This document shows positions 568 to 25,654 of a stretch of DNA of 28,072 bases, piece by piece. Source of the DNA: a virus; IMG/VR virus record IMGVR_UViG_3300010397_000079, positions 1-28,072 of that record; one strand, 5' to 3'. Every line of letters begins with the position of its first letter. Position 1 is the stretch's first letter. The translations under genes and the position numbers were made by a program. Under the pieces are notes generated by a model. The model worked only from the letters and a program-made list of their open reading frames with translations, made no database searches and was not told where the DNA came from.

Positions 568-879
568 ATGCCACGCATCATCTGGGTTCGCATTCCTAAG
601 TTCTGCGCCATGACGGGCGAGACAGATGACAGCGTGCGCGCGAACATGAACAACGGGCACTGGCCTGAAGGTATCGTATGGAAGAAAGCGCCGAACGGCC
701 GCATCTACATCCACACGAGAAACTTCAACAAATGGGTCGCGGGTCAGGTGTACGCGCCACGAGCGCGAGTTCGATCGGGATCAGCTTCGTCTGGAAAGGG
801 GTCCGATGCCGCGAAAGGATCGCGCTCCCCCCGACTGGCCGTAATCTCAACTACGTCAAGCGGCTCAGGGCAACCATAG
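568..879 (+). CDS. xis: excisionase-like DNA-binding protein, overlapping int
   Basis: The ATG at 568 begins MPRIIWVRIPKFCAMTGETD. Residues 1-60 have the excisionase-type winged-helix layout: W-V-x-I-P-x-F-C at the start, an HTH (MTGETDDSVRANMNNGHW), then the wing with PEGIVWKKAPNGRIYIHTRNFNKWVAG. Such proteins bend att DNA and direct the integrase towards excision. The last ~45 residues are low-complexity (RSGSASSGKGS) and lie inside the start of the integrase gene in another frame, so this tail is probably a by-product of the overlap. The position directly before int fits. The domain is clear by pattern, but biochemical activity is inferred. Confidence 0.72.
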   Translation: MPRIIWVRIPKFCAMTGETDDSVRANMNNGHWPEGIVWKKAPNGRIYIHTRNFNKWVAGQVYAPRARVRSGSASSGKGSDAAKGSRSPRLAVISTTSSGSGQP

Positions 880-1850
880 AGCATGAAATCGCAACCGGCA
901 CCTTCGATTACGCGCGGCATTTCCCTGACAGTCCGCGGCTGGCAACTCTGGCAAGGCAATCGCCTGGAACACCTCTCGCCGGAGCCATGGAGTTTTACCT
1001 TGACGGTCTCGCCGGACAGATCGAACCTGAGACGCTTGCGAAATACCGTCACGATGCTCGAACGGTCGCTGGGTGGTTCCCGCAAGCCACGCTCCAAAGT
1101 CTCACGCGGCGCGAAGTCCGTAAGCAGATCGCGAGCCTCAACCTCTCGCGCAAGCGGCTCCTCAACCTCCTCACGCCGCTCCGCGGAGCGCTCGAGCAGG
1201 CGGTAGAGGATGAAGTCATCGAAGCAAACCCGCTCTCCCGGTTCAGGGTCCGCCGTGTCGCAGCGCCGGTTGAGAAAATCGACCCGTTCACTCGTGAGGA
1301 AGTTGATCGACTCGGCCGAACCGAGCTCGGCAACCTCTGGACACTCTGGGCATGGACGGGAATGCGGTCCGGTGAGGTTATCGGACTCGAATGGCCTGAC
1401 GTGGACCTTACGAGCGGCTGTCTTCACATCCGGCGAGCTGTTCGTGTGGGTCGCACGAAATCACCGAAGACGGAATCTGGCCAGCGAGTTGTCCGTCTGC
1501 TTCCCAGCGCACGGGCAGCTCTTGAAAGCATGGCGCCGCCGGAACGATCCGGACCGGTCACGCGCAATCCGTCTACAGGCAAGCGATGGCACGAGGACAG
1601 AGGACTTGCCCGGGCGTTCAGGAAAGCCTGCGAGACGGTCGGCGTCCGCTACCGCTACCCCTATCAGCTCCGGCACACCTTCGCTTCGTGGGCGCTCTCG
1701 AGCGGCGAGAACCCGCTCTGGGTCGCGAAGCAGATGGGGCACCGCGACGTGACCATGATTTTCAAGGTTTACGGGCGGTACATGCCGGACATGAACCCCG
1801 AGGCTGGTCAAAAAATGATCAACCCCAAAGGCAACATCCAGGCAGCATGA
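732..1850 (+). CDS. int: tyrosine-type site-specific integrase
   Basis: A 372-residue tyrosine recombinase from the ATG at 732. A longer in-frame start at 678 adds 18 residues unlike the family. The N-terminus (RGSGVRATSASSIGISFVWK, then CRERI, NLNYVKRLRATIEHEIATGTFDY) matches the arm-binding domain of phage integrases (DUF3596-like). A core-binding domain spans about residues 85-175. The catalytic set is R212 (TGMRSGEV), K246 (KSPKTESG), Y311-x-x-R314-H315 (PYQLRHTFAS), H337 (QMGHRD) and nucleophile Y347 (KVYGRYMP). The usual HxxR histidine is Tyr, as is common in this subgroup. It ends 30 bases before the proposed attP core and is expected to integrate the phage into the host tmRNA gene. 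Confidence 0.95.
   Translation: MGRGSGVRATSASSIGISFVWKGVRCRERIALPPTGRNLNYVKRLRATIEHEIATGTFDYARHFPDSPRLATLARQSPGTPLAGAMEFYLDGLAGQIEPETLAKYRHDARTVAGWFPQATLQSLTRREVRKQIASLNLSRKRLLNLLTPLRGALEQAVEDEVIEANPLSRFRVRRVAAPVEKIDPFTREEVDRLGRTELGNLWTLWAWTGMRSGEVIGLEWPDVDLTSGCLHIRRAVRVGRTKSPKTESGQRVVRLLPSARAALESMAPPERSGPVTRNPSTGKRWHEDRGLARAFRKACETVGVRYRYPYQLRHTFASWALSSGENPLWVAKQMGHRDVTMIFKVYGRYMPDMNPEAGQKMINPKGNIQAA
1828..1837 (+). repeat. candidate integrase arm-type site (P arm)
   Basis: AAGGCAACAT lies within the last codons of int. The same ten bases recur at 1978-1987 on the other side of the tmRNA-like core, and the inverted GTTGCCTT lies at 1934-1941. Repeats flanking the core in this way are the usual layout of lambda-type arm sites. 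Binding is inferred. Confidence 0.5.
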
Positions 1851-12735: not shown

Positions 12736-14132
12736 GCCGCAATCCTCCCGCCCCGCCCTGTCCACTGCGTGTCACGGATTGCGACCTGGATCGGGTCTGT
12801 AACGGCGGCGCGGAACACACGAGGCTTGCGAGAGCTCCCGATGCGTGCCCAGCCGATCTGGTGCAGGTAGTCACCGATCGCGCCAATCGTGCGATTGGGC
12901 ATCGAGAGCCACGTTTTGCCGCCATCATCCGAGTAGTCGAGCATCATCTCGGGCGCTGAGCCCTGCCCGCTCGTGAGACCCACGCCCGACTCCGCAATGA
13001 TGTCCAGGCGATCGTGGAAGGCCGGCGTACGGCTATCCGGCAGCACCGGCTGGTAGGTCCACTCCATGCGCTGGATCGCGCCCCACTCGTCGTAGACGGA
13101 CGAGGAGAGGTAGCCGATCTTGTTCGAGGTGGCATCGCCTACGAGCTCGAGACCGAACGCCTGCGCGTGGCACTGGCCTGCGATCCAGTAGTCATAGCCG
13201 TACGTCTGCCGCTCGTGCCATTCCTGCGTCGTCGCGTCGTAGACGTATGTGCCTTCGGGGAAGGTGAACACGCCGAAGAGATGACCGTCCTGCGTGTAGC
13301 TGTATCCGCGCCCGGATGCCATCGTGACGGTCGTCAGGAACTGCTCGACCGCATGCGTTGAGATGCGAACTGCAGTCGTGCCCTGAAGCCTGCGGATTGT
13401 ATAGTCGTCTGCCGGCCAGACCACTGACTGGTCGAGCTTGAACGCCATGTTCGCATTCAGGCAGCCGATCTCGACGAACCCGTTCGCGGCGCGCTGGAAC
13501 GGAAAGCCCGCGCTTCCGATGTTGTCCCAGATCTCGACGGTCTTCGCGCCGAGCAGGATGACCTGGCGGTGATCGACCTTCATCCCAAGAAGGTTGTCGG
13601 GCGCGCCCTCCGCGCTTGCGAAGTTGAGTGCATCGAAAGACGTTGCAGACCCAAGGTCCGAGCCGAAGAAGACGTCCGAGTCAGGCTCAGTGAAGAGCAG
13701 GAAGTTGTCCAGGAACTCGACGCTGTTCGCACCCAGCGCCGTGAAGTCCGCGTCCGTGATCTGCCCGAACGTCGTGCCATCGTAGTAGTACGCGTTCGGC
13801 TCGTTCACGATGACGATCGAGGTCGTGTTCGCGTCAATGTCGATATTGCCGGGGGTGCCGATGTCGCCCAGCAACGTAGCGGTCTTCGCCGAATCTACCT
13901 TGTAGAGCTTCGTGCCCGAGATCACGAACAGGCAGCCGATCGCGTAGAAGAGGCCCGCAATGGGGCCCGTGCCCACCGTCGTCCACGCACCAATCCCCGG
14001 CGCACGCAGCAGCATGGCCGGCGTCTTCGCATCAGGTGGCAACTGCTCCGGATAGCAGTTCACCAATCGCGACGTCGACGCCTGTGTGGCGCGCGTGCGG
14101 TAGGAGCTGATCGGGAGGCTGAGCTGGCTCAT
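12732..14132 (-). CDS. P22 gp10-like tail hub/nozzle (packaged-DNA stabilisation)
   Basis: 466 residues, close to P22 gp10 (about 470). It has the family's beginning SRLVNCYPEQLPPDAKTPAM, then LRAPGIGAWTTVGTGPIAGL and CLFVISGTKLYKV, with repeated beta-propeller-like blades (SIVIVNEPNAYYYDG; VEFLDNFLLFTEPDSDVFFG; WPADDYTIRRLQGT; YVYDATTQEWHER; YSDDGGKTWLSMPNR). Proteins of this family seal the neck after packaging and form the tail nozzle to which the spikes bind. It is directly downstream of the gp4-like gene, the normal P22 order. ATG at 14132 overlaps the previous stop (ATGA). Confidence 0.88.
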   Translation of the reverse strand: MSQLSLPISSYRTRATQASTSRLVNCYPEQLPPDAKTPAMLLRAPGIGAWTTVGTGPIAGLFYAIGCLFVISGTKLYKVDSAKTATLLGDIGTPGNIDIDANTTSIVIVNEPNAYYYDGTTFGQITDADFTALGANSVEFLDNFLLFTEPDSDVFFGSDLGSATSFDALNFASAEGAPDNLLGMKVDHRQVILLGAKTVEIWDNIGSAGFPFQRAANGFVEIGCLNANMAFKLDQSVVWPADDYTIRRLQGTTAVRISTHAVEQFLTTVTMASGRGYSYTQDGHLFGVFTFPEGTYVYDATTQEWHERQTYGYDYWIAGQCHAQAFGLELVGDATSNKIGYLSSSVYDEWGAIQRMEWTYQPVLPDSRTPAFHDRLDIIAESGVGLTSGQGSAPEMMLDYSDDGGKTWLSMPNRTIGAIGDYLHQIGWARIGSSRKPRVFRAAVTDPIQVAIRDTQWTGRGGRIAA

Positions 14133-14536
14133 CCGGTTGTGATGTCCCAGGTGCGACAGTCGCCGGTACCGGCGGGGCGGTTGAGCATCTGCCCGGTCGG
14201 CAGGCGCGCATTCATGGTGGTGCGCAGGATCGTGTCGTAGGCGCTCGACGCGGTCGCACCAAGCTCCTGACTCACGGTCGCGCCGTAATTGCTCGCAAGG
14301 CTGATCGCAAGGGCGAGCGTGACGCCGAGCTCTGCGTAGTCGGGAATTGGGCAGGTGTCAGAGGCGAGTGTCTGCGGGTAAAACCCGATCTCGACCCCGT
14401 CCTCCAGCCACTTCGCCATCATCTGATTGAGCTTTCGAAGGGCATGCGCGTACTGCTCGGCGCTCGGCGTCTGGATCTCGCTGATGACGTTCAGTTCTCG
14501 CAGGGCATCGGCGATCACGTCGGCGTTCGTGGTCAT
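14129..14536 (-). CDS. P22 gp4-like tail accessory / head-completion protein
   Basis: 135 residues from the ATG at 14536 (TGATG with the upstream stop); an ATG at 14548 lacks space for an RBS. The sequence is helical and matches the adaptor type: ADVIADALRELNVISEIQTP, SAEQYAHALRKLNQMMAKWL, EDGVEIGFYP, then PDYAELGVTLALAISLASNY, and RPAGTGDCRTWDITTG. In P22 gp4 is the first factor added to the portal, making the platform for gp10. The next gene being gp10-like supports this. P22 gp4 also has wall-hydrolase activity, for which I see no evidence here. Confidence 0.82.
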   Translation of the reverse strand: MTTNADVIADALRELNVISEIQTPSAEQYAHALRKLNQMMAKWLEDGVEIGFYPQTLASDTCPIPDYAELGVTLALAISLASNYGATVSQELGATASSAYDTILRTTMNARLPTGQMLNRPAGTGDCRTWDITTG

Positions 14537-15360
14537 CAGTAGGTACATCCTGCGCAGGGCGAGCCGACTTCACGCCGGCTCAGGAGCTTTTCGCGTCGTT
14601 CCCGCCACGCGGGGGCGTTGTAGATCTCGAGCAGCGTCTGGTTGCTCGCATCGCCTATGCCGTGCTCACCGGTCCCATCCATGCAGCACAGCGCCGACTT
14701 TCCTGTCGCCGTGATCGAAAGCTCGAACCAGCGCGAACACGGCGTATCAGGCACTTCCGTCTTCTGTGCGTCCGTGTAGCCGAGCCACGAATCGCGCTTG
14801 ATGGCGACCGACTCGAAGTTCGGCCACCGCTTGAAGCAGTAGTAGCGAAATTCCTCGTTCGGGTAGCCGACCGTCGACAGCACCACGGTGTGGGGAAACG
14901 GCTGGGAATGCAGGTAATCGAGACGCTTGGCGGTCTGCTCGAAATCGAGCCCCATCACCCGCTCGTACTCCTCGGGAATGTGGGAGTTGAGCGATACCCA
15001 CAGGTGCGCGACCTTCTTCAGCTTCGCGATCTGCTCGATGTTCTTGGGAGTCAGCGCGGCGCCGTTGGTGAAGAGGCGCAGTACGATGTCCGGTGCTTCA
15101 CGATTGATCCGCTCGCACAGTGGAATGGTGCGTTTGTCGAGCAGCGGCTCGTTGACCTTGAACGGCGAGAAATACAGTGGGCGCTTCCAACTGATGAGCT
15201 CGCTCACGAGCCGGTCGAGCGTCTCGTCGCTCATGCGCGTGCCCTTGCGATCGAGCGTCGGATACGGGCAGAACGTGCACCGGGCGTTGCACAGTGCAAG
15301 CGTCTCGATGGATACCTCGATCGGGTAATCGAGGAACGAGGCCTGCATCTGCTCGTACAT
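14536..15360 (-). CDS. radical SAM enzyme with SPASM-like C-terminus
   Basis: 274 residues. C24-x3-C28-x2-C31 (ALCNARCTFCPY) is the [4Fe-4S] radical SAM motif, preceded by the usual IEVSIETLALC strand. A partial TIM barrel follows (PLYFSPFKVNEPLLD; LRLFTNGAALT; HLWVSLNSHIPEEYERVMG). C208, C225, C226, C269 and C272 (CSRWFELSITATGK, ALCCMDG, CAGC) are arranged as in SPASM/twitch domains that hold an auxiliary cluster. Enzymes of this class modify peptides, sugars or RNA. It is last in a glycosyltransferase-methyltransferase-radical SAM set inserted in the virion genes, so it probably acts on the same substrate, which is unknown. ATG directly abuts the upstream TAA. Confidence 0.85.
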   Translation of the reverse strand: MYEQMQASFLDYPIEVSIETLALCNARCTFCPYPTLDRKGTRMSDETLDRLVSELISWKRPLYFSPFKVNEPLLDKRTIPLCERINREAPDIVLRLFTNGAALTPKNIEQIAKLKKVAHLWVSLNSHIPEEYERVMGLDFEQTAKRLDYLHSQPFPHTVVLSTVGYPNEEFRYYCFKRWPNFESVAIKRDSWLGYTDAQKTEVPDTPCSRWFELSITATGKSALCCMDGTGEHGIGDASNQTLLEIYNAPAWRERREKLLSRREVGSPCAGCTY

Positions 15361-15966
15361 TTATTTCACTGCCACGAGCACGAATCCCCACTTGTCCTCG
15401 CTGCTGCCAGGACCGTTGGGAACGTCTTCAGTCGTCACGGCGGTGCGGAAATTACCCTTGTAGACGTGGCGGTAGTCGGTCATCGGCGTGCTGCCGACCT
15501 GCTGATAGCCGTTCTGGTCGAGGAAGATCAGCGTGTGCGGGCACAGGACTCGCGAATGGCCCGGATCGGCCCAGGCCCACGGGGAATCCCACTTTGGGCA
15601 CGCACCGACGAGAAAGCCGCCCGGCTTCAGGATTCGCCAGAACTCCTGGAACTGCGCAAAGAAGAAGCGCCAGTCGCCCTGCTGCCCCGTGTGCTCGAGG
15701 ATGTCCACCGCGTGAATCTCGTTGAACGAGTTGTCCGCGAACGGCAGCGGCAGCACGTTCAGGTCGTGCAACACATCGGGCTTGCAGTCCGGGTCGATGT
15801 CCAGGCGCGTAAGGTTCTGGAACTGCTGCGGGACGTACTGGAACTTGATCTGCTTGGTTGAGCGGTTGCCGCAGCCGATCAGGAGCTCACGGTAGTCCGC
15901 GAGATCCACTTCCTTGCCGTCCATGCCGATGACGACTTCGAGATTGTCTTTCACGACTGCGTTCAT
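15361..15966 (-). CDS. class I SAM-dependent methyltransferase
   Basis: 201 residues with a Rossmann methyltransferase core. The SAM-binding loop is LLIGCGN at residues 28-34, preceded by DYREL. The acidic residue after strand 2 is in LTRLDIDPDCKPDVLHDLN, and motifs IV-V are LPFADNSFNEIHAVDILEH and RILKPGGFLVGACPKWDSPW. The pattern is of the Methyltransf_11 type, which acts on small molecules, sugars or lipids, and is not a typical DNA methylase because it lacks NPPY/DPPY-type motifs. ATG overlaps the stop of the glycosyltransferase gene, so the two products are probably co-made. Methylation of a transferred sugar is a fair inference. Confidence 0.85.
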   Translation of the reverse strand: MNAVVKDNLEVVIGMDGKEVDLADYRELLIGCGNRSTKQIKFQYVPQQFQNLTRLDIDPDCKPDVLHDLNVLPLPFADNSFNEIHAVDILEHTGQQGDWRFFFAQFQEFWRILKPGGFLVGACPKWDSPWAWADPGHSRVLCPHTLIFLDQNGYQQVGSTPMTDYRHVYKGNFRTAVTTEDVPNGPGSSEDKWGFVLVAVK

Positions 15967-16820
15967 GCGGCGCTACTCACATTGCCATCGGCTCGGGTAA
16001 CGACACCGCCATCGTGCTTGACCATTTCCCCGGCATCTTTCAGCCGGTTGAGGTAGTCCCAGAAATTGCCCTGGAAGCCGTGGTGCTTGAACGTGAAGTT
16101 CGACCACACCGGAACCGGCGAGCCGTACTTTTCGACGTATTTGTCGCAGAAGGTGTAGTCCTCGCCGATCAAGCGGAACCCGCCGGCGACCTTTTCGCCC
16201 TTCTGGATGAGCTCGCGCGCTTGCCCGTACGTGTGCGCAATCGTCTTGCCGGGCGCGGTCGACTGCTCGATGACTTCCTTCTTCAGGTCAAAGAGCCAGG
16301 GAACGCCACCGGGCTGATCGGCAACCTCCAGAACAGGCGCATCCTTGGCCATCTCCTCGAGCACCTTGCGCGAGATGCATAGGAAGCCCGTCGGCACGCG
16401 TTCGCACTGCAGCCAGTCGTTGACGAACCACAGGCCGCCGCCGTCCGGATTCTCGGCAGGCTTGAACGGGTAGTCCTCGTGCGCCTGGCGACGTCGATAG
16501 ATGCCGGCGCAGATCGGCAGGCCCGAGCGCATGAGCCCGACGAAGGCGCGAGACTCGAACTGCAGGTCGCCGTCGATGAAGAACAGGTGCGTGCAGTCGG
16601 TGTGCTCTTCGAGAAACTTCTTCACGAAGATGTTGCGCGCAAGCTCGATGAAACCCACATTCCCGATCAGCCCCGCGGTGACCTGGATGTTGTACATCGG
16701 GCAACAGAAAGCCGTTTCTGCCAGCGATTGCGCGAACGCATCGTCCACCTGCCCGTTGTAGGCAGGCGTGCAGATATAGGCGTGCAGGGGCGGTCCAGAC
16801 TGCTTGTGCTTGAAGGCCAT
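15963..16820 (-). CDS. GT-A fold glycosyltransferase
   Basis: 285 residues of a family-2-like glycosyltransferase found in phage structural regions. The N-terminal strand and nucleotide site are HAYICTPAYNGQVDDAF. LARNIFVKKFLEEHTDCTHL leads to FFIDGDLQFE with D83-x-D85, the metal- and sugar-nucleotide-binding motif. Next are PICAGIYRRR and RVPTGFLCISRKVLEEM. The GED motif is in LIGEDYTFCDKYVEKYGSPV, with the closing H in NFTFKHHGFQGNFWDYL. It should transfer a sugar to a protein or glycan acceptor. It is first in the three-gene modification set. No ribosome site is visible because the coat terminator hairpin ends about five bases before its ATG. Confidence 0.87.
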   Translation of the reverse strand: MAFKHKQSGPPLHAYICTPAYNGQVDDAFAQSLAETAFCCPMYNIQVTAGLIGNVGFIELARNIFVKKFLEEHTDCTHLFFIDGDLQFESRAFVGLMRSGLPICAGIYRRRQAHEDYPFKPAENPDGGGLWFVNDWLQCERVPTGFLCISRKVLEEMAKDAPVLEVADQPGGVPWLFDLKKEVIEQSTAPGKTIAHTYGQARELIQKGEKVAGGFRLIGEDYTFCDKYVEKYGSPVPVWSNFTFKHHGFQGNFWDYLNRLKDAGEMVKHDGGVVTRADGNVSSAA

Positions 16821-16825
16821 AGAAG

Positions 16826-16852
16826 AAGGGGCGGTTTGTTAGACCGCCCCTT
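16826..16852 (-). terminator. hairpin terminator after coat gene
   Basis: AAGGGGCGGT (16826-16835) and ACCGCCCCTT (16843-16852) form a perfect 10-base stem with a 7-base loop. Read on the - strand the stem is followed by TTCTTCTATGG, a modest T-rich run. It sits just after the coat stop (16859-16861) and directly before the glycosyltransferase start, so it probably lowers but does not abolish transcription into the downstream genes, which are still needed for the tail. Confidence 0.8.
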
Positions 16853-16858
16853 TCTCGT

Positions 16859-18127
16859 TTAGAGGTTGAGGAGGGACTGCTGGGTGAGATGCCGGCAGGA
16901 AAGCTCCGGCAGGAGCGGCGCAAATCCCCACAGCACGTCGAATCGACCCACCACCACGTCACTGGTGGAGTTGTACTGCTGGATGAAGCGCATCGAGATG
17001 TTGTCGGAGACCGCGCGCGAGCATGCCGCGCCATACGGGGACATGTCCTCGAGATCCACCGAGGCAAACGCGAACGCGTCCCGGTGGAAGATGAGGTCCT
17101 GCGAGAAGGTCGTCGCAGAGGCACCGAGGCGCGTGAGGGTCAGCGCGCTCGTGTCCGACACGCCGGACAGCGCACAGTTCTGGAACGCGTTACCCGAACC
17201 GTAGATGAGGGCGGGCTTCACGGTCACCGTGTAGGTGCTCGTCGCCGTCGTCATGGTGATGTCAGCCTGCACCACGAACTGCTGTAGGCGGCCGTAGTTG
17301 GACTTGGATTCGGCATGCACCGCGTACACGCCCGAGAGGGTGATGATGTCACCCGCCTTGAGAGTGCCCGTGGCCGTCGCGCCAGTCACCGACAGCGCAG
17401 TCGTGGAGACCCACGAGTTGGCCGTGGTGGACAGGCCGAGGGTCGTGCCGAACGTGACGGGAGAGCCCGCCATCGTGCCCGTGGTGTGCGGCGGCAACAG
17501 CGTGTTCTCGCCGACATCCACCCCCGCCGTGCGGCCGATGATGCCCTCACGGAACTGCTCGTTGAGGTTCGACTGCGCAGCGAACAGGCCCTTGGTAGAG
17601 TCCAGGAACTCCACCACAGACGCCGGGTTCAGCAGGCCCGTACGATCGCCTTCCGGCGCAAGCTCTTCCGTCAGGCGCTGGGCCGTTTTCTGGAAGTAGC
17701 GGTACGTCAGCACCGTGTTGGTCGTCGCGTTGACGCCGTTGTTCACGACGCGATACGCCGCGGTCAGCGCATCCGACTCGATTTTCGCCGCGATCTGCCT
17801 CATGGCAGGCCGCAGAACGCGCTTGCTGTAGTCGTCCAGCGAAAGCGTGCGATCCTTCGTGGTGAAGGACACGTCAACGCCGTACTGGCTGAGCACAGCG
17901 AGCGGAGTCGCGCGTTCGAAGTGATCCTGACCGGAGAACGTCGCATTGGTGCGCACGTTGTACTTCGCCGGCAGGCGCATGTTGATGGTATCGCCGGCCT
18001 TCATGCCGGACTTCGCGAACTCGTCGCGATATTCCCGATTTACACCAGTGATGAAGTTGCCTTCCTGGTGCAGGATTCGAGCTGCCTCACGCGTGATGAT
18101 GAGGTTGGTGAGAAGATTGTTTGCCAC
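16859..18127 (-). CDS. P22-type major coat protein
   Basis: 422 residues (P22 gp5 is 430). N-terminus MANNLLTNLIITREAARILH is followed by FAKSGMKAGDTINMRLPAKY, VDVSFTTKDRTLSLDDYSKR and RPAMRQIAAKIESDALTAAY, which are the N-arm, E-loop and spine helix layout of the P22 coat HK97 fold. A Thr/Gly/Val-rich inserted region (residues ~230-330, for example TGATATGTLKAGDIITLSGV) fits the I-domain. C-terminal SQDLIFHRDAFAFASVDLED is a strong P22-coat family signal. GTG at 18127 lies four bases after the scaffold TAG. It forms the T=7-type capsid with the scaffold and the portal. Confidence 0.93.
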   Translation of the reverse strand: MANNLLTNLIITREAARILHQEGNFITGVNREYRDEFAKSGMKAGDTINMRLPAKYNVRTNATFSGQDHFERATPLAVLSQYGVDVSFTTKDRTLSLDDYSKRVLRPAMRQIAAKIESDALTAAYRVVNNGVNATTNTVLTYRYFQKTAQRLTEELAPEGDRTGLLNPASVVEFLDSTKGLFAAQSNLNEQFREGIIGRTAGVDVGENTLLPPHTTGTMAGSPVTFGTTLGLSTTANSWVSTTALSVTGATATGTLKAGDIITLSGVYAVHAESKSNYGRLQQFVVQADITMTTATSTYTVTVKPALIYGSGNAFQNCALSGVSDTSALTLTRLGASATTFSQDLIFHRDAFAFASVDLEDMSPYGAACSRAVSDNISMRFIQQYNSTSDVVVGRFDVLWGFAPLLPELSCRHLTQQSLLNL

Positions 18128-18130
18128 GGA

Positions 18131-18961
18131 CTACTTGCCTCGCTGCTTGGCGATTTGCTTGTTCCGCAGCCGGGTCCACTCCAGATCAGAAAGCTTGTCA
18201 CTGTCCGGAGCATCTGGTTTCGGCAGACCTCCGGGGTTACCCGCATTCTCCAGTCGTGGGGCCGGCGGCGGCGCTCCACTGACTTGCGCAGGGGTCGGTT
18301 TGCCCGCGAGCTTCGCTTCCAGCCGTCCGATCTCACGCGCCTGTTGCAGCGGCGGGAGACGGGACAGATTGAGCGCAACCTGGCGGTTCTTCCCCAAGTG
18401 GTAGGCAAGCTCCGCGCTGTTGTCCGACTCCATGATGATTTCCGCCATGGATTCGGTGATCGGTGCGTAGTGGGCGACTTCGAAGTAGTCCGGGACCTTC
18501 TTCGCGAACTCAGACTCGCGCTCTTTGTGAGCGGTCACGGTCTGAAAACGCGCGGTCTCAGTCTGCTTTTTCGAAAGCACCGCTTCGGCGGCAGCCACCG
18601 CGCGGGACTCGGCCTGCTTGAACAGGTAGGCCTGATACTTCGATTCGTCGTACGCAAAGTCAGCGAGGGTCTTGCCGACGTCCTGAGGTGCCTCGGCCGG
18701 CGGTTTCGGTTCTGGCTTGGGTTCCTGCACACGCTGTGCATGCTCCCGCCAGTAATCGCGTTCCCGTTCGGCGTCGTACCTTCTGCGAGTCAGCTCATCA
18801 ATCCGCTTCTGGACAGGGTCCAGCACCTTCGAGGTGTCTTCGTCCGGATTGGTGACGGCGGGGGCTGATTCCGCACCCTGCGTAGGCTCCGGCTCGTTCG
18901 CATCCGCTACTTGAGGGGCTGTGGCAGTTGTTGCAGCGACATCATCGGCAGTCGCGCTCAT
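18131..18961 (-). CDS. scaffolding protein
   Basis: 276 residues, in the usual position between portal and coat. An acidic, low-complexity N-terminus (TADDVAATTATAPQVADANE) precedes a helical, highly charged middle (KRIDELTRRRYDAERERDYW, REHAQRV), then a Pro/Lys linker (EPKPEPKPPAEAP). More helices follow (FAYDESKYQAYLFKQAESRA, VAAAEAVLSKKQTE). A basic C-terminal helix (LEWTRLRNKQIAKQRGK) resembles the coat-binding helix-turn-helix of P22 gp8. It directs coat assembly and leaves before DNA packaging. No RBS is obvious before its ATG at 18961. Confidence 0.8.
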   Translation of the reverse strand: MSATADDVAATTATAPQVADANEPEPTQGAESAPAVTNPDEDTSKVLDPVQKRIDELTRRRYDAERERDYWREHAQRVQEPKPEPKPPAEAPQDVGKTLADFAYDESKYQAYLFKQAESRAVAAAEAVLSKKQTETARFQTVTAHKERESEFAKKVPDYFEVAHYAPITESMAEIIMESDNSAELAYHLGKNRQVALNLSRLPPLQQAREIGRLEAKLAGKPTPAQVSGAPPPAPRLENAGNPGGLPKPDAPDSDKLSDLEWTRLRNKQIAKQRGK

Positions 18962-23875: not shown

Positions 23876-25654
23876 TCACTTGTACCCCACGAGCACGGTG
23901 ACCTCGTTTGCAGAGATCGAGGTGTTGTCCGTGGCGCCGATACCACCGGTCACCGCAATGGTGATGCCTGTGCCCATCGCAATTCCCTTGTCGATGTTGA
24001 GCACGAGGCCGGCGCCAGTGGTGGCGCCCGGGATGATGAACTGGTAGTCCGCGGCGGTCGTGCCCATCGTCACGCCTGCTGAGGTGTTGTTGAACACCTT
24101 GAGGTAGCGCGCCGCAGCGTTGAGGTTCTGCGCCGAGATGCAGTAGAGCTGGCCGGCGGAGGCCTTGACCTGCGTCTTGTTATTGGTGGCGGCTGAGGCA
24201 ACCACGGCAACGAACGAAAGGCCTCCCGATGTGGCTGGCGTATCGGTGGTGAGCCAGGGCGTCGTGTTCGCCGTGTTGCCGGGCTGGACTGTCCAGGTAC
24301 CCGACTGGACGGCATTGACACTGAACGCAGTATTGTCGCTTGCGATCGTGACGCGCTGGCTGCCGGTGCCTGTAACGCCGTTGCCCATGAGGGGCGTGAC
24401 GCCGTTGATCTGCGCGACGTTGACGGACTGGTTGGCCGAAAGGCTCCATGCGCCCGACTGGGTGACGGCGACAGTACCCGATACGCGGGTGACATCGACA
24501 TCGAGGCCGTTCGTCGTATCGCTTCTCAGGCGGTCCCAGGTGGTGCCGTTGTAGCCGGCGAGGTAGCTGATGATCTCCTGCATGTCGTTTTCGTTCGAGC
24601 GCGCATCCTGGGGGCGCACGCTCGAGGCGTTCGGCATGTTCGTGTGGAACATCGTCTGCAGGCGAAAGGAGGACTGGTTCGTTCCCCCGTTCGTGTAGAC
24701 GACACGGAAGAACTTCGCGGTGACCTGCACACCGAACGTCTTGCCGGTAGCGGCTGGCACCGTGTAGACATCGACGATGTCCCAATTGGTGCCGTCCGAG
24801 CTCTGCTGCATCGACAGGCCGTCGGTTGCAGAGGCGTGCGAGGCAATGACCGAGACTGTTACCGAGGCATAAGCGGTGATGTCCTCGCTCGTGCCCGTGA
24901 AGGCTGCTGCAGCAAGTAGCGTTGATGTCGTGGAGTTGACCGACGACACCGCGGAGGCAGTCCCCGAGCCACTGAAGCTTGTGACCTGCGTACCTGTGCC
25001 ATCCACGATCTGAACGGTCAGCGCGCGCTCTGAGCCACGGGTGGCCGAGGTGATGGCGTTTCCAGAGCCATCCTGTGTGCGGCTGGTCCACGTACCACTC
25101 TGGGCAGCCTGCACGGCGAAGGTGCCGGCGTTGGTGACCGCGTGGCTCGGGACTGACGCAAGGCTGACCGGCAGCGTCGTGATGGCCGCAGAACCATCCG
25201 AGAGCCTGACGAACACCGGCGTGCCCACCGGGGCGTCGACAGTCAGGGTGCCGGCGTTGTCCGTGACCGGGATAGCGTTGCCCGAGGCGTTCACGAGCAG
25301 CGGCGTCATTGACGCGATGCCCTGCACGCTGATCACATCAGTGGAGGCAGATCCGGCTGTGCCGAGTGCGGGCTGCTTCGCCGCGGTGGCGGCACCGGTG
25401 GGCAGAGGCAGAGATGCTGCGGAGATGGCGAACGTGCCGGTGCCGGCATTCGCGGTGATTGTCCCGTCGACTGTGACCGACCCACCAGCATCCGAGATTG
25501 GCAGCGGATTGGTGGTGCTGACCTGGGTGGGCGCGTTACCGGTGGTCGAGACACCGATCTTGACGACCTGAAACTCGACGTTCGGAGCGCCAGCAACGGT
25601 ATCCGTTCCAAGAACGGCACCACCAGTACCCGGGTTGAGTTCGACGTTGCTCAT
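23876..25654 (-). CDS. large repetitive beta-structured virion protein
   Basis: 592 residues rich in Thr, Ser, Ala, Gly and Val with few Cys. Repeated QSGTW-type units (AAQSGTWTSRTQDGSGNAIT; VTQSGAWSLSANQSVNVAQI; NAVQSGTWTVQPGNTANTTP) with TVDGTITANAGTGTFAISA suggest a beta-strand shaft. The middle (STLLAAAAFTGTSEDITAYA, DGLSMQQSSDGTNWDIVDVY) resembles a carbohydrate- or receptor-facing beta-sandwich seen in phage proteins, and QLYCISAQNLNAAARYLKVF is a known trailing block. It is likely a fibre or surface protein of the head or tail. It has no signal peptide and its start overlaps the upstream stop. Confidence 0.72.
   Translation of the reverse strand: MSNVELNPGTGGAVLGTDTVAGAPNVEFQVVKIGVSTTGNAPTQVSTTNPLPISDAGGSVTVDGTITANAGTGTFAISAASLPLPTGAATAAKQPALGTAGSASTDVISVQGIASMTPLLVNASGNAIPVTDNAGTLTVDAPVGTPVFVRLSDGSAAITTLPVSLASVPSHAVTNAGTFAVQAAQSGTWTSRTQDGSGNAITSATRGSERALTVQIVDGTGTQVTSFSGSGTASAVSSVNSTTSTLLAAAAFTGTSEDITAYASVTVSVIASHASATDGLSMQQSSDGTNWDIVDVYTVPAATGKTFGVQVTAKFFRVVYTNGGTNQSSFRLQTMFHTNMPNASSVRPQDARSNENDMQEIISYLAGYNGTTWDRLRSDTTNGLDVDVTRVSGTVAVTQSGAWSLSANQSVNVAQINGVTPLMGNGVTGTGSQRVTIASDNTAFSVNAVQSGTWTVQPGNTANTTPWLTTDTPATSGGLSFVAVVASAATNNKTQVKASAGQLYCISAQNLNAAARYLKVFNNTSAGVTMGTTAADYQFIIPGATTGAGLVLNIDKGIAMGTGITIAVTGGIGATDNTSISANEVTVLVGYK

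What the first reader, a model, noticed from the sequence alone, without database searches (positions are those of the whole stretch)
14536..16820. Glycosyltransferase-methyltransferase-radical SAM cassette between coat and gp4
Three enzyme genes with coupled or abutting starts break an otherwise P22-like order. A GT-A protein with DxD, a class I methyltransferase and a radical SAM/SPASM-like protein could build a methylated or otherwise altered sugar on the coat protein, or change host envelope sugars. This is the best candidate for an undescribed system in the window.
Basis: partly seen in the sequence, partly recalled or inferred. Interest (0 to 1): 0.82.

Follow-up and report, generated by a model that had tools for sequence, protein, structure and literature searches.

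The report
Phage coat-linked sugar-modifying enzyme cassette
Three enzyme genes beside the shell-protein gene of an uncultivated P22-like virus turn out to be a widespread, conserved module that probably attaches and then chemically trims a sugar on the virus particle, something known only from a few other viruses and not found described with this kind of radical enzyme.

Summary
Between coat and gp4 lie a GT-A glycosyltransferase (no Pfam match; AlphaFold pLDDT 91; best PDB match STIV A197), a small class I methyltransferase, and a radical SAM enzyme with one auxiliary-cluster (twitch) domain whose nearest solved relatives, BtrN and DesII, act on sugar-like molecules. In loci retrieved by coat alone, 54 of 55 with a complete coat-gp4 interval carry GT-MT and 26 also carry the rSAM. 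The trio recurs in other orders (L052 MT-rSAM-GT beside an unrelated portal; L076 rSAM-MT-GT). GT divergence tracks coat divergence (partial Mantel 0.72) but not scaffold or gp4. A terminator-like hairpin is conserved between coat and cassette. One relative carries a decayed rSAM gene, so that gene is dispensable. None of 14-17 related records matched an NDP-sugar epimerase, a thymidylate-synthase-type base hydroxymethylase or GtrA. Best reading: coat glycosylation from a host sugar donor, with methyl capping and optional radical oxidation. Acceptor, sugar and rSAM reaction are inferred. No published description was found in the papers searched. Novelty: new variant of a known kind (phage-encoded virion glycosylation); the radical SAM step is the new part.

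The parts
16859..18127 (-). P22-like coat protein gene, proposed acceptor
   Evidence: PF11651 1.1e-31, phrog_283 2e-66
16821..16851 (-). terminator-like hairpin between coat stop and GT start: 9-bp perfect stem (16851-16827) plus tail TCTTCT
   Evidence: z -4.2; same position in 44/100 coat loci vs 0-2 after each of eight other genes and 7/1030 random windows
15963..16820 (-). GT-A fold glycosyltransferase, A197-like; DxD at 16574-16566
   Evidence: AF2 pLDDT 91.3, pTM 0.86; Foldseek top 2c0n 3.9e-08, then LH3/COLGALT1; phrog_1574
15361..15966 (-). class I SAM methyltransferase; motif I LLIGCGN at 15885-15865
   Evidence: PF08241; 59% mean column identity in 17 aligned members
14536..15360 (-). 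radical SAM enzyme with twitch (single auxiliary cluster) domain; CX3CX2C at 15291-15268; auxiliary Cys codons at 14739, 14688/14685, 14556, 14547
   Evidence: PF04055+PF13186; AF2 pLDDT 94.7; DesII, BtrN best folds; BtrN profile hit 2.8e-25 over both domains; Cys invariant in phage members
14129..14548 (-). gp4-like tail accessory / head-tail adaptor, right border of the cassette
   Evidence: PF11650 3.4e-08, phrog_637 1.5e-22
18131..18961 (-). scaffold gene, left neighbour of coat; does not co-diverge with coat-GT
   Evidence: phrog_8865 1.7e-36

Best explanation
A late-operon virion glycosylation module. The soluble GT-A enzyme transfers one sugar (or a very short glycan) from a host nucleotide-sugar to the coat protein. 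The methyltransferase caps that sugar by O-methylation. In about half of the clade, including this phage, the twitch radical SAM enzyme further oxidises or otherwise alters the sugar, as BtrN and DesII do on cyclitols or sugar nucleotides. The cassette lies behind a terminator-like hairpin, so coat would be made in large excess over the enzymes. Shown: enzyme classes, conserved catalytic residues, conserved linkage and order, GT-coat co-divergence, the hairpin. Inferred: coat as acceptor, host donor, methylation of the sugar rather than the protein, the rSAM reaction, read-through expression.
For: GT-MT in 54/55 complete coat-gp4 intervals retrieved by coat profile alone, 26 of them with rSAM. 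Catalytic residues invariant: GT D83, D85, E220, D221, H246; rSAM Cys in phage members. GT identity tracks coat (Spearman 0.72, 4005 pairs; partial Mantel 0.72 given scaffold, p 0.001) but not scaffold (0.11) or gp4 (0.01) given coat; scaffold, equally adjacent to coat, does not track coat once portal is controlled (0.01). Phages with coat 80-97% alike keep GT median 77%, MT 72%, rSAM 71%, but scaffold 41%, gp4 44%. Best folds are STIV A197 and collagen hydroxylysine glycosyltransferases LH3/COLGALT1, with a PBCV-1 capsid glycosyltransferase (2p72) lower; STIV A197 is essential and possibly glycosylates the STIV major capsid protein (PMC10551542). rSAM nearest solved: DesII, BtrN. Trio in other orders beside other genes: L052, L076. 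GT fused to a non-homologous class I MT in the same slot, L175. No membrane segments. No NDP-sugar epimerase in 17 related records.
Against: No mass or glycan data; the phage is uncultivated. Physical adjacency alone makes neighbouring genes co-diverge. Distant GT relatives lie in replication regions, and MT with or without rSAM occurs next to terL in phages with other capsids and no adjacent GT of this family, so MT/rSAM need not always serve this GT. Ser/Thr content of cassette-linked coats is only slightly higher than in four cassette-free coats (19.6 vs 17.6%) and no convincing acceptor site emerged. Twitch/SPASM enzymes often act on peptides.
Confidence: 0.5

Rival explanations
1. The module modifies host envelope sugars during late infection or lysogeny (receptor masking, superinfection exclusion), like seroconversion cassettes.
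For: Integrase at 678-1850 suggests a temperate phage; GtrB is among weaker fold matches; distant cellular rSAM relatives sit near polysaccharide synthesis, CDP-alcohol phosphotransferase and heptosyltransferase genes.
Against: No GtrA in 14 related records with a working control; GT has no membrane helix; conserved place inside the head operon rather than near the integrase; GT divergence follows coat.
Confidence: 0.15
2. rSAM and MT modify the coat or another head protein directly (amino-acid oxidation, epimerisation or methylation), the GT adding an independent sugar.
For: EpeE/YydG, SuiB and AnSME are among fold and profile matches; MT-rSAM pairs occur beside terL with other capsids and no adjacent GT; MT tracks rSAM (partial 0.50) more than coat.
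Against: Best matches are the sugar enzymes DesII and BtrN; GT-MT is the near-invariant pair and a GT-MT fusion exists.
Confidence: 0.2
3. A small glycosylated metabolite or nucleotide product is made (counter-defence or host takeover), unrelated to virions.
For: Weak match of the rSAM core to prokaryotic viperins; distant GT relatives outside structural operons.
Against: Viperin score 22.5 against a 180 cut-off in NCBIfam, and the cassette rSAM has an added twitch domain; near-fixed coat linkage.
Confidence: 0.1
4. DNA hypermodification of the packaged genome by GT, MT and rSAM.
For: Phages with radical SAM and glycosyltransferase DNA-modifying enzymes exist (own knowledge); MT-rSAM pairs adjoin terL in some phages.
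Against: No thymidylate-synthase-type hydroxymethylase in 17 records with a working control; Tet_JBP also not found, but that control did not ring.
Confidence: 0.04

Closest known systems
STIV A197 glycosyltransferase and glycosylated STIV coat
   Same: Small viral GT-A enzyme, best PDB fold match (2c0n, E 3.9e-08, prob 1.0); virus with a glycosylated major capsid protein
   Different: 14% identity; archaeal virus, no MT or rSAM described with it in the review read; 285 vs 197 aa
Mycobacteriophage Che8/Rita capsid glycosylation
   Same: Phages reported to carry glycans on major capsid proteins; relatives encode glycosyltransferases (PMC11256854, citing Freeman et al. 2023)
   Different: Mycobacteriophages of cluster F1; in Maravista the GT genes lie near the 3' end of the genome, not by coat; Che8 GT Q855A2 is only a weak fold match (E 1.5e-4); no radical SAM partner known to me
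BtrN (butirosin 2-deoxy-scyllo-inosamine dehydrogenase)
   Same: rSAM domain plus twitch domain; profile match 2.8e-25 over both domains; TM 0.69/0.77; auxiliary Cys pattern
   Different: About 16% identity; substrate and reaction of the phage enzyme untested; phage enzymes have an invariant CC where BtrN has one Cys
DesII (TDP-amino-sugar deaminase)
   Same: Best fold E-value (4.4e-13); acts on a sugar nucleotide (own knowledge)
   Different: Longer protein; no sugar-nucleotide epimerase found in the phage records
LH3 / COLGALT1 hydroxylysine glycosyltransferases
   Same: GT-A domain fold, protein acceptors
   Different: Eukaryotic, 8-11% identity, hydroxylysine acceptor not expected here

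Membership tests
Radical SAM superfamily | CX3CX2C motif and radical SAM barrel core | tested here: met
   PF04055 above cut-off; C24/C28/C31; AF2 model and fold matches
Twitch (single auxiliary cluster) enzymes such as BtrN | C-terminal domain with four-Cys ligand set for one [4Fe-4S] | tested here: met
   C208, C225, C269, C272 align with BtrN Cys; invariant in phage members; the cluster itself not assayed
Full SPASM enzymes | Seven-Cys domain with two auxiliary clusters | tested here: not met
   Five conserved C-terminal Cys only, although PF13186 matches
[quoted passage not shown]
   No substrate evidence
GT-A glycosyltransferases | GT-A fold with DxD | tested here: met
Class I SAM methyltransferases | Rossmann fold with Gly-rich motif I | tested here: met
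   PF08241 above cut-off; invariant E27, G31, G33; no structure predicted
Phage virion glycosylation systems | Glycan covalently bound to a virion protein, dependent on the phage GT | not testable with these tools
   Genomic linkage only
Gtr-type LPS seroconversion cassettes | GtrA flippase with membrane-bound GtrB | tested here: not met
   No GtrA in 14 records; GT without membrane helix
Prokaryotic viperins | Score above curated cut-off | tested here: not met
   22.5 vs 180 bits; weak PADLOC pVip hit
Thymidylate-synthase-family-dependent DNA hypermodification | Thymidylate-synthase-type hydroxymethylase in the phage | tested here: not met
   0 of 17 records, control rings in 9; records may be fragments

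The most novel reading that the evidence does not exclude
A virus-encoded radical SAM enzyme rewrites a sugar after it has been attached to the capsid, giving virions an oxidised, methylated glycan that no host enzyme makes; GT-MT is the core and rSAM the variable tailoring step, exchanged between phages with unrelated capsids.
Probability: 0.3. Interest if true: 0.82.

Novelty: new variant of a known kind. Interest (0 to 1): 0.62.

Why it matters
Phage capsid glycosylation is known from few systems, and I found no report of a radical SAM enzyme dedicated to virions. This module is near-fixed in a large uncultivated P22-like clade, so its product is probably important to those phages. It gives a compact, testable system (coat plus three small soluble enzymes) for asking what phage capsid sugars are for, and a possible new class of radical SAM substrates.

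Tried and rejected
Viperin-like counter-defence (rejected on score and domain make-up). DNA hypermodification (no TS-family enzyme; the Tet_JBP search had no ringing control). Gtr-type LPS conversion (no GtrA). Chance grouping (rejected by 54/55). Full SPASM assignment (Cys count). Searching annotated phages: rSAM found only one 23% match in an unannotated faecal phage record, MT none. Isolated P22-like relatives PAE2 and PBR31 lack the cassette and carry short unrelated genes there; phiAX1 lacks it too. A search for coat acceptor sites specific to cassette-bearing phages gave no convincing site. Rfam: nothing in 14000-17500. Sequence search of the PDB for GT and MT gave no relatives. Literature searches found no description of the trio; the library is partial and the primary Che8 paper was not held.

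Full report
WHAT IS THERE. The window is a 28,072-base IMG/VR virus record. On the minus strand it has P22-like order: terminase, portal, scaffold, coat, then three enzyme genes, then gp4-like and gp10-like genes. The three ORFs are intact, tightly packed (GT and MT overlap by ATGA; MT and rSAM abut; rSAM overlaps gp4) and have the GC content of their neighbours.

ENZYME CLASSES. The first ORF has no Pfam family and only phrog_1574 'unknown function'. AlphaFold on a 59-sequence alignment gave pLDDT 91; Foldseek against the PDB puts STIV A197 first (E 3.9e-08), then the GT domains of human LH3 and COLGALT1. D83 and D85 (DxD), E220, D221 and H246 are invariant in the alignment. The second is a short class I methyltransferase (PF08241). 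The third is a radical SAM protein: pLDDT 95, best folds DesII and BtrN, and a profile match to BtrN over both the core and the C-terminal domain (E 2.8e-25). All phage members aligned keep CX3CX2C and five C-terminal Cys, which fits one auxiliary cluster (twitch) rather than two (SPASM). The review PMC9012708 describes BtrN as a twitch enzyme performing a two-electron oxidation with an auxiliary cluster held by four Cys.

IT IS A CONSERVED MODULE. Scans of IMG/VR with rSAM, GT, MT and coat, plus bacterial contigs, gave 171 non-redundant loci in all. The count free of query bias comes from loci fetched with the coat profile only: of 55 with a complete coat-gp4 interval, 54 have GT-MT, and 26 of these add rSAM. 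These are the 80 best coat matches (51-89% identity to the window), include some near-duplicates, and speak for this clade only. Isolated P22-like phages PAE2, PBR31 and phiAX1 lack the cassette; a Manatee Spring genome has MT then GT in the same slot, the GT annotated by its depositors after A197.

LINKAGE BEYOND THE P22 CLADE. L052 has MT-rSAM-GT beside a phrog_332 head-tail adaptor; L076 has rSAM-MT-GT; L057, L066, L073 and L068 have the MT-rSAM pair directly or closely after terL, with, where tested, a different portal family (L068) and a different major head protein family (L073). L175 has a GT of this family fused to a C-terminal half with a weak class I methyltransferase match that does not match the MT profile, again between coat and gp4. 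So GT-MT coupling has probably arisen more than once.

WHO TRACKS WHOM. GT identity correlates with coat identity across phages (0.72) while scaffold, the gene on coat's other side, correlates with coat at only 0.38. In partial Mantel tests GT follows coat given scaffold (0.72, p 0.001), gp4 (0.75) or portal (0.71); it does not follow scaffold or gp4 given coat; scaffold does not follow coat given portal; MT follows rSAM (0.50) and, weakly, GT (0.26). This fits a GT matched to its coat and more freely exchanged MT and rSAM. The caveat is that correlation along the chain coat-GT-MT-rSAM also follows physical order.

EXPRESSION. Right after the coat stop lies a 9-bp GC-rich hairpin with a T-rich tail (z -4.2). 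A strict search finds such a hairpin after coat in 44 of 100 loci, against at most 2 after any of eight other genes and 7 of 1030 random windows. The generic scanner did not list it, as its T-count rule is stricter. It is most simply a terminator or attenuator that would keep the enzymes scarce relative to coat; that function is inferred.

rSAM IS OPTIONAL. In L020 the space between MT and gp4 holds what looks like the start of an rSAM gene and a decayed C-terminal fragment, a recent loss; 28 of the 54 GT-MT intervals have no rSAM.

MECHANISM. Soluble GT (no membrane segment), no NDP-sugar epimerase, GtrA or thymidylate-synthase-type enzyme in 14-17 related records: the donor is probably a host nucleotide sugar and the acceptor a soluble macromolecule. 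Coat is the best candidate by linkage and co-divergence. MT methylates the sugar and the rSAM alters it further. These last steps are inferences from relatives (BtrN, DesII). Distant cellular rSAM relatives (24-29% identity) have polysaccharide-synthesis, CDP-alcohol phosphotransferase and heptosyltransferase genes among their neighbours, which mildly favours sugar-type substrates. Against: distant GT relatives lie in replication regions (ctz7E20 also has a methyltransferase nearby), and no acceptor site stood out in coat.

NOVELTY. Phage and archaeal-virus capsid glycosylation is known. I found no paper describing this trio or a virion-linked radical SAM enzyme, in a partial library. I file it as a new variant of virion glycosylation, with function unproven.

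Noticed in passing
window 16851-16821, minus strand, and coat 3' ends of 44/100 related loci: Conserved terminator-like hairpin immediately after the coat stop, specific to that junction.
   Followed up: yes
L020:4480-4640: Decayed remnant of the rSAM gene between MT and gp4: start plus C-terminal piece, interior missing.
   Followed up: partly
L007:5396-5989: An extra alpha-helical-looking ORF of 197 aa sits between MT and rSAM; the same interval in L019 is also longer. Function unknown.
   Followed up: no
window 678-1850, plus strand: Tyrosine integrase with Arm-DNA-binding domain, so the phage is probably temperate.
   Followed up: no
L145:4206-5254: Two tandem methyltransferases of the cassette family (GT-MT-MT-rSAM).
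   Followed up: no
window 23876-25654: 592-aa protein without Pfam, PHROG or NCBIfam match upstream of the terminase; a relative lies between portal and scaffold in L026.
   Followed up: no
L083:933-2198, L078:1299-2444: rSAM relatives 43-45% identical in bacterial MAG contigs (Reyranella, Betaproteobacteria), the first near a secA-like gene; possibly cellular sources or captured copies.
   Followed up: partly
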